From assembly GCA_902806205.1 (NCBI GenBank), contig CADCVR010000087.1, positions 1 to 48,104 on the forward strand: DNA of 48,104 bases, given 5' to 3'. The position numbers were made by a program, and so were the translations under genes. The notes under the pieces were generated by a model, which did not search any database, was not told the DNA's origin, and saw nothing but the letters and a program-made list of their open reading frames with translations. Positions within the stretch are counted from its first letter, which is position 1, and each line of letters begins with the position of its first letter. The DNA comes from an uncultured Solirubrobacteraceae bacterium (GTDB taxonomy: Bacteria; Actinomycetota; Thermoleophilia; Solirubrobacterales; Solirubrobacteraceae). Shown here piece after piece: positions 5,199 to 28,404 of the stretch.

Positions 5199-5289
5199 GA
5201 GGCACCAGGCGGTCGCGGCGCTGAGTCCGACCGCCGTGGTGTCCAAGCTCGTCGGCTTCGCCAGAAGACCGATGAGAAGGAGCACCACG

Positions 5290-6537
5290 ATGGCCGAGGA
5301 CCGGATGATGACCCCTGCTGATGTCGTCGCGAAGGCGATGGCCGGCGAGCAAGGAGACATGCTGCGCGACGCGGTCGCGATGATCGTGCGCGAGTTGATG
5401 GAAGCCGAAGTCGCCCAGCTCACTGGCGCCGCCCGGGGGGAGCGCGCCGACGGGCGGGTGACACACCTCAACGGGTACCGCCAGCGGGCCTGGGAGACGC
5501 GGGTCGGCGAGGTCGACTTGGCGATCCCCAGGGCCCGGTCGGGCCCGTCCTACTTTCCGTCGTTCTTGGAGCCGCGGCGGCGCTGTGAGCAGGCGATCGT
5601 GGCGGTCGTGATGGAGGCCTACGTCAACGGCGTCTCGACCCGGAAGGTCGACCGGCTCGTCGAGCAGCTCGGCATCCAGGGCATGAGCAAGGACCGCGTC
5701 AGCCGCCTGTGTCGCGAGCTCGATGAGCACGTCGAGCAGTTCCGCCAGCGTCCACTCGAGGGCGCCTACCCTTACCTCTGGCTCGACGCCAAGCACGTCA
5801 AAGTCCGCGACCGAGGCCGCGTCGTCTCCAAGGCCTTGGTCGTCGCCTACGCCGTCGCAGAGGCCGGCCACCGTGAGGTGATCGGCCTGGACATCGGCGA
5901 AGTTGAGTCCGAGGCGTTCTGGACGGAGTTCCTGCGCGGCCTGCGGGCCCGCGGCCTGCACGGCCTCAGGCTGGTCGTCTCCGATCACCACGAAGGCCTC
6001 AAGAACGCAATCGTCCGGGTCCTCGACGCGCCCTGGCAGCGCTGCACCGTCCACTTCGTCCGCAACATGCACGGCCACTGCCGACCGGCCCAACGCGGCC
6101 TGGTCTCCGCGGCGTTGCGGGAGGTCTTTAACGCCACCGATCGCGCGGAGGCGCGGCGCCGTGTCGGTGACGTCATCGAGCGTCTGCAGCCGTTGGCTTC
6201 GAAGGTCGCCGAGCTGCTCGAGGCTGCCGAGGAGGACCTGCTCGCGTTCTTCGCTTTCCCGCCCTCGCACTGGTCAAAGCTGCGCTCGACGAACCCGCTC
6301 GAGCGCGTCAACCGCGAGATCGGCCGACGCGCCGATGTCGTCGGAATCTTCCCCAACGACGCCAGCGCGCTGCGCCTCACCGGCGCTTTGCTGATCGAGC
6401 AGAATGACGAGTGGCTCGTCTGTCGCCGCTATCTCTCCGAAGAGTCCATGCGCCTGATCCTCGACGCGGTGACAGAGCCGATCATCTCTCTCCCCAACGA
6501 CAACGAACAGGAGGACCACGCGGCGCTCGCCGCCTGA
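5290..6537 (+). CDS. IS256 (Mutator-like) family transposase
   Basis: A 415-residue DDE transposase of the MULE/IS256 superfamily that moves the surrounding element. Conserved features are the first catalytic Asp in YLWLDAKHVKVR, the second in LVVSDHHEGLKNAI, and the catalytic Glu in the C-terminal motif STNPLERVNREIGRR. The CTVHFVRN segment between them is typical of the family. The start at MAEDRMMTP is preferred over an in-frame start 54 nt upstream because AGAAGGAG lies eight bases before it. The frame is intact and of normal length, so the enzyme is probably functional. Confidence 0.93.
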   Translation: MAEDRMMTPADVVAKAMAGEQGDMLRDAVAMIVRELMEAEVAQLTGAARGERADGRVTHLNGYRQRAWETRVGEVDLAIPRARSGPSYFPSFLEPRRRCEQAIVAVVMEAYVNGVSTRKVDRLVEQLGIQGMSKDRVSRLCRELDEHVEQFRQRPLEGAYPYLWLDAKHVKVRDRGRVVSKALVVAYAVAEAGHREVIGLDIGEVESEAFWTEFLRGLRARGLHGLRLVVSDHHEGLKNAIVRVLDAPWQRCTVHFVRNMHGHCRPAQRGLVSAALREVFNATDRAEARRRVGDVIERLQPLASKVAELLEAAEEDLLAFFAFPPSHWSKLRSTNPLERVNREIGRRADVVGIFPNDASALRLTGALLIEQNDEWLVCRRYLSEESMRLILDAVTEPIISLPNDNEQEDHAALAA

Positions 6538-6946: not shown

Positions 6947-7105
6947 TGAGGCGGGGGCCGGGTGATGGAGTAAGTGGCCGGAGGGGTCTGCAGGACAGAC
7001 GCGTCCCCGCCCTCGCGGCTGTTTTTGGTGCGGCGCGGCGTTTTTGACCCCCGCTCAGGCGCTCAGGAGGGCGCGTAGCGCCCCACGGACCGCCGCACCG
7101 AGGGG
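6947..7105 (+). repeat. dispersed ~160-bp repeat, copy A
   Basis: It begins TGAGGCGGGGGCCG and ends CCGCACCGAGGGG. It is highly similar, in the same orientation, to 8392-8551. Shared blocks include GCAGGACAGACGCG, CCCCGCCCTCGCGGCTGTTT and CGCTCAGGCGCTCAGGAGGG. Copy A adjoins the terminal end of the IS21-family relic. Confidence 0.8.
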
Positions 7106-7109
7106 AAAC

Positions 7110-7289
7110 TGTCAACGATCGTGAGAATTCCCCAGTTGCGATCGTGAGAATTCCCCACCGTCGGCGGGACGCGATGCCGCGGTTGGTGGTCAGGATGATC
7201 GAGCCGTGCTCGTAGCGGCGCGAGATGACTTGGAAGAGGTGCGCGGCGGCTTCGCCGGGCATCGGCAGGTAGCCGAGCTCGTCGATCAC
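7110..7289 (-). mobile_element. IS21-family relic: terminal repeats plus truncated istB
   Basis: A terminus beginning TGTCAACGATCGTGAG contains two copies of the 18-mer GATCGTGAGAATTCCCCA at 7117-7134 and 7140-7157. Multiple repeats of this kind are characteristic of IS21-family ends. A fragment of the istB helper gene runs straight into them. The transposase istA and most of istB are missing, so the element is dead. Confidence 0.7.
7164..7289 (-). pseudogene. istB (IS21 helper ATPase) fragment
   Basis: About 42 codons of IstB remain: the Walker B region MIDELGYLPMPGEAAA followed by FQVISRRYEHGSIILTTNR. In a full IstB these lie in the middle of a ~250-residue AAA+ protein. Here the Walker A half is missing upstream and the C-terminal part is replaced directly by the element's terminal repeats, so both ends were deleted. 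Confidence 0.8.
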
Positions 7290-7367
7290 CCCGTGGCTTC
7301 GCCATGAGCTGCTGCTTTCGTCCAGCAGGACTCACCGAGGTTCTCGGTGGCGTCGGCGAAGCTTCGT

Positions 7368-8391: not shown

Positions 8392-8551
8392 TGAGGCGGG
8401 GGCCGAGGTGATGGATTACGTGGCCGGAGATGTCCGCAGGACAGACGCGCCCCCGCCCTCGCGGCTGTTTGGGTGCGGCGCGGGCGTCTTTGAGCCCCGC
8501 TCAGGCGCTCAGGAGGGCGCGTAGCGCCCCCGGACCGCCGCACCGAGGGGG
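8392..8551 (+). repeat. dispersed ~160-bp repeat, copy B
   Basis: The same unit as 6947-7105 in direct orientation with scattered substitutions. The two copies bracket the IS21 relic, the MarR gene and the cupin gene. It contains short internal palindromes around AGGAGGGCGCGTAGCGCC but no plausible gene. Confidence 0.8.
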
Positions 8552-9265
8552 AAGGGGGGCGGGTCGCGTTTCATGGGGCGGGAGAACGCCCTCGGGGAGG
8601 CGCCGGCGGCTTTGCGGGCCTGGCGGTTGAGCTGTGCTCGATCAAGGGGGGAGGCCCGTGAGGGCCGTTCTCCGCGGCCCGCACACTTCTCCTGCGGCCA
8701 CGGGTCGCCGGGGCGCTGACCCGGCTCGCCCGGCCTGAGCGGTCCCTTGCCGCGACGAGCTGCCCTCCCCACCCAGCCGCTGTCGCCTCGTCGAGCCTTG
8801 GGCCCGCCACCGCTGCTGCTCCTTGGAGGCACAAGAAGACTCTCCAGCCCGGCGACGCCGTCTGGCGCCGACGGGCTGCCGCGCTCGGCGGCCACGCGGG
8901 ACCACCGCGCAGTGCCGGTGGAGGTTCCGCTTTGGGCGCCGGCTCTTCGGTGACCCACCGCTGCTCAGCCGCCGCGAGCGGCCGCGCCTGGTCTCGGTTC
9001 GACACCCGCCGCGAGTGATCCTGACCGTGGCTCTAGCCGATGAACCAGTGCGGGCTTCCGGCGCGCCGGCACGGCGAACATTGGCGGCGCGCTTGGAGCC
9101 TCCGCCCCGAGTCCCGCCGAAGGACCGGCATGCGGGGACGCCTCTCAGGCTCCGCGCGTCAGCACGGACGGAGCCAGTCTTGTTCAGGGCACGAGCTGGG
9201 AACGTCGGTGGCAGGATGGGGCGGTTAATCGGCCCCGTGGGGCCTCACGATGACGAGGCAAAGCG
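8552..9265. other. intergenic region, no convincing gene
   Basis: Open frames occur on both strands but are rich in Arg, Pro and Ala and lack any recognisable domain, as expected of shadow frames. A minus-strand stretch reading RAQLNRQARKAAGASPRAFS near 8582-8645 looks slightly protein-like but is too short to assign. A small GGGGC/GCCCC palindrome lies about 45 bp before the next gene. Confidence 0.4.
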
Positions 9266-10159: not shown

Positions 10160-10375
10160 ATGAGCGTGATCTCGTCGAAGAACCAGTTGACGCTGCCGGT
10201 GGAGGCGATGCGCGCGGCGGGGCTCTCTTGCGGCGATGACGTGCAGGTGGTCAGCTCGGGGCCGGGTCGCATCGAGATCGTGCGCACCGATGCGCTGATC
10301 GCCAAGTACGCCGGCAGCCTGCCCGGGGTCTACGACGAGAACTACCTCGAGAAGCTGCGCGGCGAATGGGAGTAG
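10160..10375 (+). CDS. vapB: AbrB/VapB-type antitoxin
   Basis: A 71-residue antitoxin. The N-terminal half has the swapped-hairpin AbrB/MazE DNA-binding pattern (SSKNQLTLPVEAMRAAGLS, then GDDVQVV). The C-terminal tail (KYAGSLPGVYDENYLEKLR) is the part that in this family wraps the toxin. It overlaps the start of the PIN toxin gene by 10 bp, the usual order and coupling. The start follows a -10 box by seven bases, so the message is probably leaderless, and the inverted repeat there is the likely binding site. Confidence 0.85.
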   Translation: MSVISSKNQLTLPVEAMRAAGLSCGDDVQVVSSGPGRIEIVRTDALIAKYAGSLPGVYDENYLEKLRGEWE

Positions 10376-10770
10376 TGGTCTTTGACTCCGACGTCTTGAT
10401 CGCCTTCATGAGCCCCGAGGACGCCCACCACGCCGAGGCGATCGAGTGGATGCGCCAGGCGACCCGGCCGCAGACCGAGCGGTGGATCAGCGCCGTCAAC
10501 TACTCCGAGCTGCTCATCGCGCCGCTGCGCGAGGGCAAGCAGGAGCACGTCAAGGCGATGCTCGGCCACTTCTCGATCACAACCGCCGTCGTCGACATGG
10601 CTTTGGCCGAGCGCGCCGCTTCTGTCCGCGCCCGCACGAACCTCAAGCTGCCCGACGCCTACGCCCTGGCGACCGCGATCGACCTCGAGCACCGCGGCCG
10701 CAGCGACGTGCGCCTAGCGAGCTTCGACAAAAAGGTCCTCAAAGCCCACGCCGACCTGCACCCCCACTAG
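10366..10770 (+). CDS. vapC: PIN-domain ribonuclease toxin, VapC family
   Basis: A 134-residue PIN-domain protein. The acidic metal-binding residues are visible: Asp in VVFDSDVLIAFM, Glu in NYSELLI, Asp in LPDAYALATA and a late Asp in SFDKKVL. VapC toxins cleave tRNA or rRNA with Mg2+ or Mn2+ and are blocked by the partner antitoxin encoded just upstream. Length and organisation are typical and no inactivating change is seen. Confidence 0.9.
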   Translation: MGVVVFDSDVLIAFMSPEDAHHAEAIEWMRQATRPQTERWISAVNYSELLIAPLREGKQEHVKAMLGHFSITTAVVDMALAERAASVRARTNLKLPDAYALATAIDLEHRGRSDVRLASFDKKVLKAHADLHPH

Positions 10771-11320: not shown

Positions 11321-11566
11321 TTGCTGCTCCGCGCGTGGGCGACGACGCTCAGCCTCGCTGTGGTCCTTGTCGTTCTCGGCGAGGTGGGCGGACGACAGAG
11401 GGGCCCGTGCGTACCCAGTGACCCAATTCCTGACTGCCCAGAGGCTTATGGGCTGGGCGAATGGACGTACGCGATCTTCGGGGCGTTGCTGCTGGTGCTC
11501 CTCGTATGGGGCGTCCTAACGCTCGCCCTCGTCGCACGCGAGATCCTGCGGCTGCGCCGCAGCTAA
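11321..11566 (+). CDS. small membrane protein, unknown
   Basis: About 81 residues with an N-terminal helix (WATTLSLAVVLVVLGEV), an outward loop with two cysteines (RGPCVPSDPIPDCPEAYG) that could form a disulfide, and a second helix (AIFGALLLVLLVWGVLTLA) ending in basic residues. The start is uncertain: TTG at 11321 follows the previous stop by eight bases, but the frame stays open upstream to 11240. The base composition is slightly less GC-rich than the core genes. Confidence 0.5.
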   Translation: MLLRAWATTLSLAVVLVVLGEVGGRQRGPCVPSDPIPDCPEAYGLGEWTYAIFGALLLVLLVWGVLTLALVAREILRLRRS

Positions 11567-11693
11567 GTCGAGCCCGACAGCGTGAGGCCGGAAGCGCGAG
11601 TCTCAACCCCCCTCTCGAGATCCCTCAGATCCGGGGAGATCGGGAGCCCCGCGACCGTCGTTTCTGTTCCTAGTCGTAAGAGGGACGTTTAAT

Positions 11694-11826
11694 GCGCGAC
11701 TCCGAGAACGTGGGTTAGGGCCAAAAGCGCGACTCCGAGAACGTGGGTTAGGCGCGACTCCGAGAACGTGGGTTGCGGTTCGCGACGTCTCGCGGCGGTC
11801 ACGGCTACCGCGACCCCGGGAACGTG
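11694..11826 (+). repeat. 24-bp direct repeat array, three good copies and one degenerate
   Basis: Copies lie at 11694-11717, 11727-11750 and 11752-11775 with the shared core GACTCCGAGAACGTGGGTT. The third differs only in the last base. A fourth copy at 11809-11826 matches the first 18 core bases at 16 positions. Spacers are 9, 1 and 33 bp, so this is neither a regular tandem repeat nor a CRISPR array. It lies in a gene-free interval before a nitroreductase remnant. Confidence 0.8.
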
Positions 11827-11863
11827 TCCGATGCGACTGGAACGCTCTCACCATGAGCAAGCG

Positions 11864-12058
11864 TCATGAGTTACCGACGTCGGTCCGTCCTGAGCGCACC
11901 CTCAGCCGAACCGGGCTCTGGTCGACTGGGCCGGTTTTGCGGCCCGTGGTCTCGAGGATCGCGTAGGACGGCGGCGCGAGCCCGCGCTCGACCAACGCTC
12001 TGACGATCGGGTTGACGACGTACGTGGCGAGCGCTGTCGTGAAGGCGCGTTTGTCCAT
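11864..12058 (-). pseudogene. F420-dependent (Ddn-like) nitroreductase N-terminal remnant
   Basis: From the ATG at 12058 the protein reads ALATYVVNPIVRALVERG, then LAPPSYAILETTGRKTG, the N-terminal signature of deazaflavin-dependent nitroreductases of the Ddn family (normally ~140-150 residues). After TGRKTG the sequence loses similarity and stops after 64 codons, so the cofactor-binding C-terminal part is missing. It is almost certainly non-functional. Confidence 0.6.
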
Positions 12059-12066
12059 GGTGAGGC

Positions 12067-12180
12067 TCAACTGGCGTCGTCGCCGGCCGGGGCCGCTCTG
12101 GCGCCGGGGAGCCTGGCGCCGACGACGAAGGATAGGTGACCAGCTTCCACGGCGGCCTCCTCGGACAGATGACTCGCTGA
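12067..12180 (-). pseudogene. possible IS4/IS1634-type transposase fragment
   Basis: A short minus-strand stretch reads HLSEEAAVEAGHLSFVVGAR and stops at 12067. It resembles the part of IS4/IS1634-type DDE transposases just after the second catalytic Asp (D-x-G-x-L-S-E, then FIVGAR). ADAKIS in an adjacent frame immediately before it could be the preceding piece after a frameshift. Only about 30 residues support this. Confidence 0.3.
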
Positions 12181-12336
12181 TCTTGGCGTCGGCGTTGCGG
12201 CCCGTCTTACGTGCGGTGGCGCTTTTTCGTAAGAGATCGGCCGCCTGCCAAGCGAAGGGGGCATGGGGCGCAGGCTGACAGGGTTCGGGGCCGATGCTGG
12301 ACGAGCAGCCGCTCGCCGCTGCTGAAGCGAAGACGG

Positions 12337-26877: not shown

Positions 26878-28404
26878 ATGCACCGCCGCCTAACCCCCGT
26901 CATCTTCGTCATCGCCGGCCTCGCGGCCGTCGCCGGGCCGGCCACGGCGCAAGCGGCGCCGGTCACGTTCACGTGCGAGGGGTCCGCCCTGCGCGGCACC
27001 GTTCTCGGACAGCCTCTCGAGCCGAGCGTCTTCGGCCGTGGCCAGGAGTGCAGGACCGGACAGACCGTCCCGTCCATCACGCTCCCGGGTCTGCTCAGGG
27101 CGGACGTCCTGATCGCCGCCGGCCAGAAGAACAACGACGCGATGAAGCCCTCCGCGACGGGCGTCGGGGGCCTGGCGGGCGCCCGGCTCATGCTGCTGCC
27201 CGACACGCCGCTTCCCCTCCCGACCGATCAGATCCTCGCGAACATCGATGCCGTCCCGCCGATCTCGCTGCCGGGTCTGGTGACCGTCGACATCCGCGAG
27301 GCGCTCAGGGCGCTGATCCCGCTGCCGCAGGCCAACCTGCTCTCCGTCGGGGTGCTGAGCTCGGTCGCCGGCGCCAGCTGCGACGGGACGACCACCACGC
27401 CGAAGTTCGCGGGTGTCTCGTCGATCACGGGCCTGAGCGTGCTCGGCAGGGCGATCGACGTCGACACGCCTCTGCAGGACAACATCAACCTGTTCGACAC
27501 GGCGAGCATCAGACCCTCGGACATCGACATCTCGAAGCTGAACGCCACCGGTCCGCTGGGTGTCTCCGTGCCCCTCACCCAGACGTTGCAGGACGCGCTC
27601 CGGCCGATCCTCGCCGGACTGCCGCCCATCGAGATCCCGCCGGCCCTCGCCCAGGTGAAGATCTCGACCAGGGAGCAGGTGAGGGACGCGACCTCGCTGA
27701 CCCAGCGGGCGCTGCGCCTCCAGGTCTCGCTGGCCGGTCAGTCCCTGCTCGACCTTGTCGTCGGCGAGGGGAAGGTCTCGGCGGTCGGCGACTGCCCGGT
27801 GGCCGCCGCCGACGAGCCGGCCGAGCTGCAGTGCACCGACCGCAAGCTCGTGCTGCTCGACGTCTTCGAGGAGCGTGGCCGCGTGCGGCTGCGCGGCGCG
27901 GCCGACCGTGACCTGGTCGGCAAGACCGTGCTGATGAAGTACCGCGCCGACGGGAACCGCGTCGTCGCACGTGCGAAGGTCCGCAACAACGGCTCCTTCG
28001 TGACCACGGCGCCCCTGCCTCGCGCGAGCGTCCGCAACACGAACCTCTCCCGCTACACCGCGACCAACGGCAAGGAGCGCTCGCTGCCGCTCAAGCTCGT
28101 CCGGCGAATGCGAACGTCGTCGGTGCAGCCCGCGAACGGGTTCGTGACGATCCGCGGTCGCATCACCCTGCCGCTGGCCAAGCCGGCCCAGGAGATCCGC
28201 CTGGTCCGTCGCGTCGCGTGCGGCAAGGCGCAGGTCATCAAGCGCTTCAAGGCGAAGTCCGACGGCACGTTCGCCGTGCGGGTCAAGGGGTCGACGCGGC
28301 CGGCGGTCTACCGCGCGACGACGCGCGTGCGCAAGAACACGACCAACCCGAAGACCTACCCGACGTTCACGCTGCCGCGCGGCATCGACCTCGATCGCCG
28401 CTAG
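26878..28404 (+). CDS. secreted protein with repeated beta-rich domains, unknown function
   Basis: A 508-residue protein with a clear signal peptide (VIFVIAGLAAVAGPATAQA, cleavage near AQA-AP). Residues ~27-290 are rich in Leu, Pro and Gly with recurring LPGL and LPP motifs. The segment VSSITGLSVLGRAIDVD resembles the domain of choice-of-anchor P surface proteins. Residues ~310-505 form two beta-rich, basic modules ending in PKTYPTFTLPRG. Four cysteines could form disulfides. AGGAG precedes the ATG. It interrupts the common fmt-rsmB order and has no evident link to translation. Confidence 0.75.
   Translation: MHRRLTPVIFVIAGLAAVAGPATAQAAPVTFTCEGSALRGTVLGQPLEPSVFGRGQECRTGQTVPSITLPGLLRADVLIAAGQKNNDAMKPSATGVGGLAGARLMLLPDTPLPLPTDQILANIDAVPPISLPGLVTVDIREALRALIPLPQANLLSVGVLSSVAGASCDGTTTTPKFAGVSSITGLSVLGRAIDVDTPLQDNINLFDTASIRPSDIDISKLNATGPLGVSVPLTQTLQDALRPILAGLPPIEIPPALAQVKISTREQVRDATSLTQRALRLQVSLAGQSLLDLVVGEGKVSAVGDCPVAAADEPAELQCTDRKLVLLDVFEERGRVRLRGAADRDLVGKTVLMKYRADGNRVVARAKVRNNGSFVTTAPLPRASVRNTNLSRYTATNGKERSLPLKLVRRMRTSSVQPANGFVTIRGRITLPLAKPAQEIRLVRRVACGKAQVIKRFKAKSDGTFAVRVKGSTRPAVYRATTRVRKNTTNPKTYPTFTLPRGIDLDRR

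What the first reader, a model, noticed from the sequence alone, without database searches (positions are those of the whole stretch)
11694..11826. Irregular array of a 24-bp direct repeat
Three near-identical copies and one degenerate copy of GACTCCGAGAACGTGGGTT-type units lie in a gene-free gap with spacers of 9, 1 and 33 bp. Possible roles are protein-binding iterons, transposase ends, or recombination debris.
Basis: seen in the sequence. Interest (0 to 1): 0.5.

Follow-up and report, generated by a model that had tools for sequence, protein, structure and literature searches.

The report
Orphan plasmid replication-origin repeats in chromosome
The repeats look like the leftover "start copying here" signals (iterons) of an undescribed small plasmid of soil actinobacteria, stranded in a chromosome without the protein that would read them.

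Summary
The array is real. Three identical 23-bp units (GCGCGACTCCGAGAACGTGGGTT) start at 11694, 11727 and 11752. A degenerate fourth (16 of 23) starts at 11808. The unit occurs nowhere else in its genome.

The same layout occurs in three other Solirubrobacterales-type genomes: three direct repeats 33-34 and 24 bp apart, then a fourth copy with an altered centre, with an AT-rich stretch in front. In all three it sits just upstream of a gene for a 340-349 aa protein that resembles plasmid replication initiators (sub-threshold Pfam RPA). One of these contigs closes into an 11.3-kb circle. A model trained only on those three arrays picks out the window array as its best non-training hit in 146 genomes.

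Best explanation: the Rep-binding iterons of a theta-type plasmid origin. Here they are orphaned: there is no Rep gene in this genome, the array lies in a chromosomal stretch, and it abuts a truncated gene. It is probably a relic of an integrated plasmid, replication-silent unless a cognate Rep enters.

A new member of a known kind, pointing to an apparently undescribed plasmid lineage. No binding or replication has been tested.

The parts
11661..11690 (+). AT-rich stretch in front of the first iteron, candidate DNA unwinding element
   Evidence: Lowest-GC 30 bp (43%, mean 65%) of 11501-11950; the minimum lies just upstream of the first repeat in all 4 loci examined. Role inferred.
11694..11716 (+). 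Iteron 1, GCGCGACTCCGAGAACGTGGGTT
   Evidence: aligned with L037, L078, L090 arrays
11727..11749 (+). Iteron 2, identical; preceded by AAAAGCG as in the homologous arrays
11752..11774 (+). Iteron 3, identical
11808..11830 (+). Degenerate fourth site (16 of 23): arms GCGAC and GAACGTG kept, centre changed; candidate operator or weak site
   Evidence: a fourth copy with altered centre also follows the arrays in L037, L078, L090. Role inferred.
11909..12058 (-). 5' part of a gene like a 160-aa protein of G186 (family name F420/deazaflavin-dependent nitroreductase recalled), cut off next to the array
   Evidence: tblastn 68% identity to residues 1-50 of 160; clear similarity ends near 11930; rest of the gene not found in the window

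Best explanation
The repeats are iterons: the binding sites for a plasmid replication initiator (Rep) in the origin of a small theta-type plasmid lineage found so far only in this family of Solirubrobacterales-type actinobacteria. In a complete plasmid, Rep would bind the three iterons cooperatively. The neighbouring AT-rich stretch would melt and the host helicase would load. Rep on the fourth, altered site between the iterons and the rep start could repress its own gene. In this window only the origin piece is left. It is joined to a truncated chromosomal gene and no Rep gene is detectable in the genome, so it is most likely a relic of a plasmid that integrated and decayed, inert unless a related Rep protein is supplied. 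Shown: the array, its homology and layout, the Rep-like gene next to it in other genomes, one circular contig, absence of a detectable Rep here. Inferred: Rep binding, melting, autoregulation, and relic status.
For: The BLAST of window 11540-12200 against 146 family genomes hit L037 over the array (77%, E 7.6e-6). L037 has three GCGCGACTCGCCGAACGGGCTT repeats (spacings 33 and 24) and a degenerate fourth; the array begins about 150 bp upstream of a 347-aa ORF. A search with that ORF, independent of the array, found L078, whose ORF (72% identical) also has three repeats (34, 24) and a fourth in front. A model of three arrays found L090, with the same arrangement and a 59% identical ORF. All 3 of these ORFs hit Pfam RPA, Replication initiator protein A, sub-threshold (best E 5.5e-5). 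The L037 contig has an exact 147-bp terminal overlap, so it is circular at 11,313 bp, and carries a phage-integrase-family gene. Leave-one-out: model R3, built from L037, L078 and L090 only, hits window 11674-11770 at 31.1 bits (E 9.7e-9 in 48 kb); in 146 genomes it is the best non-training hit, next 22.4 bits. The AT-rich minimum sits at the same place in all 4 loci. No Rep homologue in G000. Chromosomal context: DAHP synthase, prephenate dehydrogenase and EPSP synthase genes follow.
Against: No plasmid with the window's own unit was found. The Rep-like ORFs stay below Pfam's cut-off, have no NCBIfam match (L037's ORF only) and no meaningful PDB sequence match; a fold attempt failed (pLDDT 44.5). 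Apart from the array and fourth site, homology of the window is weak: the upstream block reaches L090's score in 36 of 1000 shuffles, and the leader and the Rep N-terminus are not supported. R3 also gave a 13.7-bit hit with E 0.0026 elsewhere in the window, so its E-values are optimistic. Circularity rests on an assembly overlap in one contig of three; the other two show none of note. The 'chromosomal relic' reading rests on one MAG contig.
Confidence: 0.8

Rival explanations
1. The array is the multi-site end of a transposable element of the IS21/Tn7/Mu type, whose transposase binds several about 20-bp repeats at each end.
For: Three direct repeats just inside a TG dinucleotide (11693-11694) look like such an end (resemblance recalled). 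An IS21 remnant with two end repeats and an istB piece lies at 7116-7290, and an intact Mutator-type transposase gene at 5236-6537.
Against: No inverted partner within 3 mismatches in the window or genome; the IS21 remnant has different end repeats; the three homologous arrays lie next to a Rep-like gene, one on a circular contig. The integrase-family gene on that contig is of a tyrosine recombinase family, which does not use such ends (recalled).
Confidence: 0.06
2. The array is an operator or other chromosomal regulatory or structural site that only happens to resemble the plasmid arrays.
For: Regularly spaced identical sites are also typical of regulator binding. The three copies show no decay, which could mean they are maintained.
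Against: It lies between convergent reading frames, with no gene reading away from it; unit, 33/25 spacing and AT-rich neighbour match the Rep-linked arrays; a model without the window retrieves it first among non-training sites of 146 genomes; none of the 7 other genomes of the genus has the unit with up to 3 mismatches as an array (one single hit, G173).
Confidence: 0.08
3. The array is a live chromosomal decoy or incompatibility site: it titrates the Rep of incoming related plasmids, or lets the locus replicate when a helper supplies Rep.
For: Three undecayed iterons without their own rep; iteron copies in trans cause incompatibility in known plasmids (recalled). The chromosomal island SGI1 carries an iteron origin linked to incompatibility with its helper plasmid (PMC7433901, abstract read). 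Rep and iteron pieces occur in other genomes of the family.
Against: Those pieces look like decay, not a preserved array; the array is absent from the other members of the genus; nothing shows selection.
Confidence: 0.05

Closest known systems
Iteron plasmid origins such as pSC101, R6K, pPS10, RK2
   Same: Direct repeats of about 17-22 bp, 2-7 copies (three in pSC101), with an AT-rich unwinding element; Rep binds cooperatively (passages of PMC4980987). In L037, L078 and L090 a Rep-like gene follows.
   Different: Window copy has no rep gene; unit 23 bp; no DnaA box found with up to 2 mismatches in 11501-11950; the Rep-like protein of the relatives matches RPA only below cut-off.
Actinobacterial theta plasmids (Streptomyces pWTY27, pFP1, pFP11, SCP2)
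   Same: Rep gene plus adjacent repeat or non-coding region bound by Rep (passages of PMC3583192).
   Different: pWTY27 repeats are 7-8 bp plus long inverted repeats, proposed to be bound as a stem-loop; here 22-23 bp direct repeats. Rep-like proteins of L037 and L090 have no tblastn match in 72,556 plasmid records.
SGI1, a genomic island with an iteron origin
   Same: Iteron-type origin sitting in a chromosome (PMC7433901 abstract).
   Different: SGI1 is intact, excises and has its own rep; the window locus has neither.

Membership tests
Iteron-type plasmid origin | Several near-identical direct repeats of about 17-22 bp | tested here: met
   Three identical 23-bp copies plus a degenerate one; size range from PMC4980987 passages
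Iteron-type plasmid origin | AT-rich unwinding element beside the repeats | tested here: met
   GC minimum 43% vs mean 65% directly upstream; same position in L037, L078, L090. A modest dip, function not tested
Iteron-type plasmid origin | Cognate rep gene next to the repeats | tested here: not met
   In the window no rep, none in G000; met in L037, L078, L090. So the window is called an orphan origin piece, not a complete replicon
Iteron-type plasmid origin | Initiator of the winged-helix Rep class | tested here: inconclusive
   Pfam RPA hit in 3 of 3 homologues, below the cut-off where the score was shown; fold job of low confidence
Iteron-type plasmid origin | Autonomous replication, Rep binding to the repeats | not testable with these tools
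   One homologous contig is circular by a 147-bp terminal overlap; no experiment
IS21/Tn7-type transposon end | Inverted partner end and a transposase gene between them | tested here: not met
   No minus-strand copy within 3 mismatches in window or genome
CRISPR array | Repeats separated by unique spacers of similar, roughly 30-bp length | tested here: not met
   Spacers of 9 and 1 bp; definition recalled
Genome-wide interspersed repeat (REP-like) | Many copies across the genome | tested here: not met
   Only these three copies in 3.38 Mb with up to 3 mismatches

The most novel reading that the evidence does not exclude
The orphan iterons are kept because they act in trans: a chromosomal decoy that soaks up the initiator of incoming plasmids of this lineage and blocks their establishment, i.e. 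a protein-free anti-plasmid defence, or that fires as an extra origin when such a plasmid enters.
Probability: 0.06. Interest if true: 0.75.

Novelty: new member of a known kind. Interest (0 to 1): 0.4.

Why it matters
Iteron origins are well known, but I found no description of one from Thermoleophilia in the library searched, and the associated Rep-like proteins (L037 and L090 queried) have no match in 72,556 plasmid records. If right, this gives a recognisable origin signature and an initiator family for plasmids of a common soil group with few genetic tools (recalled), which could be turned into shuttle vectors. It also gives a signature for chromosomal plasmid scars. The window locus itself is a scar.

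Tried and rejected
CRISPR, a genome-wide repeat and Rfam RNAs were considered and dropped (no Rfam match in the window). A transposon end was my first idea, because of an IS21 remnant at 7116-7290; it was dropped when L037 and L078 showed the Rep-like gene.

Exact two-copy pattern in genome contigs: nothing. The looser pattern found 10 stretches. On reading the repeats only L076 has the layout, and it is the L037 contig; the other 9 look like coding or unrelated tandem repeats and were dropped. Viral contigs gave 1 unrelated stretch and no Rep relatives. The plasmid DNA search gave 3 weak hits, E 0.3-0.9, none covering most of the query; one was looked at and is not informative.

Claim tried and not kept: that ATG 11853 starts a truncated rep. 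Shuffles do not support it (in the best case 224 of 500 shuffles reach the score).

Model hits dropped. From: L088, L089 and L091 (judged chance, probably coding sequence); L092, a single iteron in G128, was kept as a possible relic. From, 17 of the 21 matching genomes had only matches of 24.5 bits or less, treated as background except that G128 piece; L109 (G133) was read and is a regular 24-bp tandem array without a Rep match. From: G133 at 22.4 bits and G176 at 22.1 bits; G176 was not read.

The A4 Rep profile in 346 genomes of the phylum gave nothing; this sample probably held few or none of the positive genomes, so it shows little. The fold of the L076 Rep alone was useless, so no fold search was run. 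ARAGORN's tRNA-Ser at 11919-11996 overlaps protein homology and has no Rfam support, so I treat it as false. The nitroreductase-like fragment was searched in the 8 genomes of the genus and found only in the window's own, so the ancestral state of the junction stays unknown.

Full report
Observation. The 23-mer GCGCGACTCCGAGAACGTGGGTT starts at 11694, 11727 and 11752 without a mismatch, and a 16-of-23 copy starts at 11808. With up to 3 mismatches, 0 of 100 shuffles of the window reach three matches. The whole genome of 3.38 Mb in 108 contigs has no further copy, so it is not a dispersed repeat.

Surroundings. Left of the array are a MazE-like antitoxin ORF (sub-threshold Pfam match) and a PIN toxin ORF (10160-10770) and small unassigned ORFs. 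Farther left are a 40-residue piece of IstB with two IS21-like end repeats (7116-7290) and a Mutator-family transposase gene (5236-6537). Right of it a gene on the minus strand is cut off. Residues 1-50 of a 160-aa protein of G186 match at 68%, clear similarity stops near 11930, and the rest was not found in the window. Beyond lie a pterin-4a-carbinolamine dehydratase and a run of aromatic amino-acid genes (DAHP synthase, prephenate dehydrogenase, EPSP synthase). I therefore read the contig as chromosomal.

Homologous arrays. A DNA search of 146 family genomes with 11540-12200 gave matches in 36, the window's own among them; the one that covers the array over its length is L037 (77%, E 7.6e-6). 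It has three identical repeats with spacings 33 and 24, then a degenerate copy, then a 347-aa ORF. Searching 399 genomes of the class with that ORF gave matches in 6. The best, L078, has three repeats (34, 24) and a degenerate copy in front of its ORF. A sequence-only model of the window, L037 and L078 arrays, run over 232 genomes of the order, gave matches in 7, three of them the training genomes. One new one, L090, again has three repeats (34, 24), a degenerate copy and a homologous ORF. The Rep-like ORF was thus found next to the array in 3 of the 3 array-bearing genomes other than the window's. Conversely, the A4 Rep profile matched 8 of 232 genomes: 3 are these; G129 has a broken Rep-like gene with no array in the roughly 245 bp available in front; G140 has only a fragment; G131, G150 and G179 have distant matches. 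G131 and G179 have other repeats upstream of, or near, their distant ORFs.

Fourth copies. In L037, L078 and L090 the fourth copy keeps most of the outer arms of that element's own unit while its centre is changed to a run of A; in the window the centre is changed too, but not to A. Each unit matches its own element's fourth copy at least as well as any other's (window 16, L037 16, L078 17, L090 15, ungapped and by my own placement). This fits one protein reading both the array and the fourth site in each element. That is inference.

Leave-one-out test. Because the window was in the first models, I built R3 from L037, L078 and L090 only. It hits window 11674-11770 at 31.1 bits, E 9.7e-9. The second hit in the window, 13.7 bits with E 0.0026 at 28048-28160, shows that these E-values are optimistic. 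Over 146 genomes the window array is the best non-training hit, 31.1 bits against 22.4 and 22.1.

Is the ORF a replication initiator? All 3 members match Pfam RPA, best E 5.5e-5, but the scores shown (18.7 and 18.4 bits) lie below the cut-off of 27. NCBIfam has no match for the L037 ORF and the solved-structure search found only chance matches. The L037 contig, 11,460 bp, has an exact 147-bp overlap of its ends, as expected of a circular molecule of 11,313 bp, and carries a phage-integrase-family gene and a gene with a sub-threshold HTH_17 match. The record shown for the same contig calls it Solirubrobacterales bacterium isolate CP_BM_RX_R8_18. The other two contigs are 5,093 and 5,735 bp without notable end overlap. 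A replication initiator is the simplest reading of the ORF.

Origin anatomy. In all 4 loci examined the lowest-GC 30 bp sits directly upstream of the first repeat (window 43%, L037 40%, L078 40%, L090 50%). No DnaA box was found in window 11501-11950 with up to 2 mismatches; L078 has one 2-mismatch site beside the array.

State of the window copy. No Rep homologue is found in G000, and the window leader does not resemble the leader or Rep N-terminus of the homologues beyond shuffles. Other possible scars of the lineage occur: one iteron in G128, a fourth-site-like piece with the Rep start in G184 contig 82, and Rep fragments in G140 and G129. I therefore take the window as a plasmid scar. The undecayed repeats mean it is young or kept; I cannot say which.

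Literature. Searches for Solirubrobacter/plasmid/iteron, Thermoleophilia with plasmid replication, Solirubrobacterales with plasmid, orphan or integrated iterons, Thermoleophilia with iteron and Thermoleophilia with circular plasmid listed nothing on such replicons; of those I saw listings only, partly cut (15 of 442 papers, 12 of 50). General iteron facts come from passages of PMC4980987, Streptomyces theta plasmids from passages of PMC3583192, and SGI1 from the abstract of PMC7433901.

Noticed in passing
window 6947-7108 and 8392-8553: Two copies of a roughly 160-bp sequence, 91% identical, about 1.4 kb apart, on either side of a MarR-like and a cupin ORF; a dispersed element or end of one.
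   Followed up: no
window 7116-7290: IS21 remnant: 40 residues of IstB and two direct end repeats (CGATCGTGAGAATTCCCCA type) 22-23 bp apart.
   Followed up: partly
window 10160-10770: MazE-like antitoxin and PIN-domain toxin pair about 0.9 kb left of the array; a PIN-like ORF also lies in front of the array on L103, but the two do not match by blastp beyond chance.
   Followed up: partly
window 11919-11996: ARAGORN calls a tRNA-Ser(cga) here, overlapping protein homology on the other strand and without Rfam support; probably false.
   Followed up: partly
L083 1498-2660 and L082 300-760: Distant Rep-like ORFs of G179 and G131 have other repeat families nearby (GGTGGTCCAAAGTCCCCCCT and ACCGTGGGG types), suggesting more iteron replicons in this family.
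   Followed up: partly
L109 around 1400-1560 (G133 contig 232): Five-copy regular 24-bp array (AAGCGCCACGCGGGGACCTGGGCG type) next to a palindrome-like stretch, no Rep match nearby.
   Followed up: no
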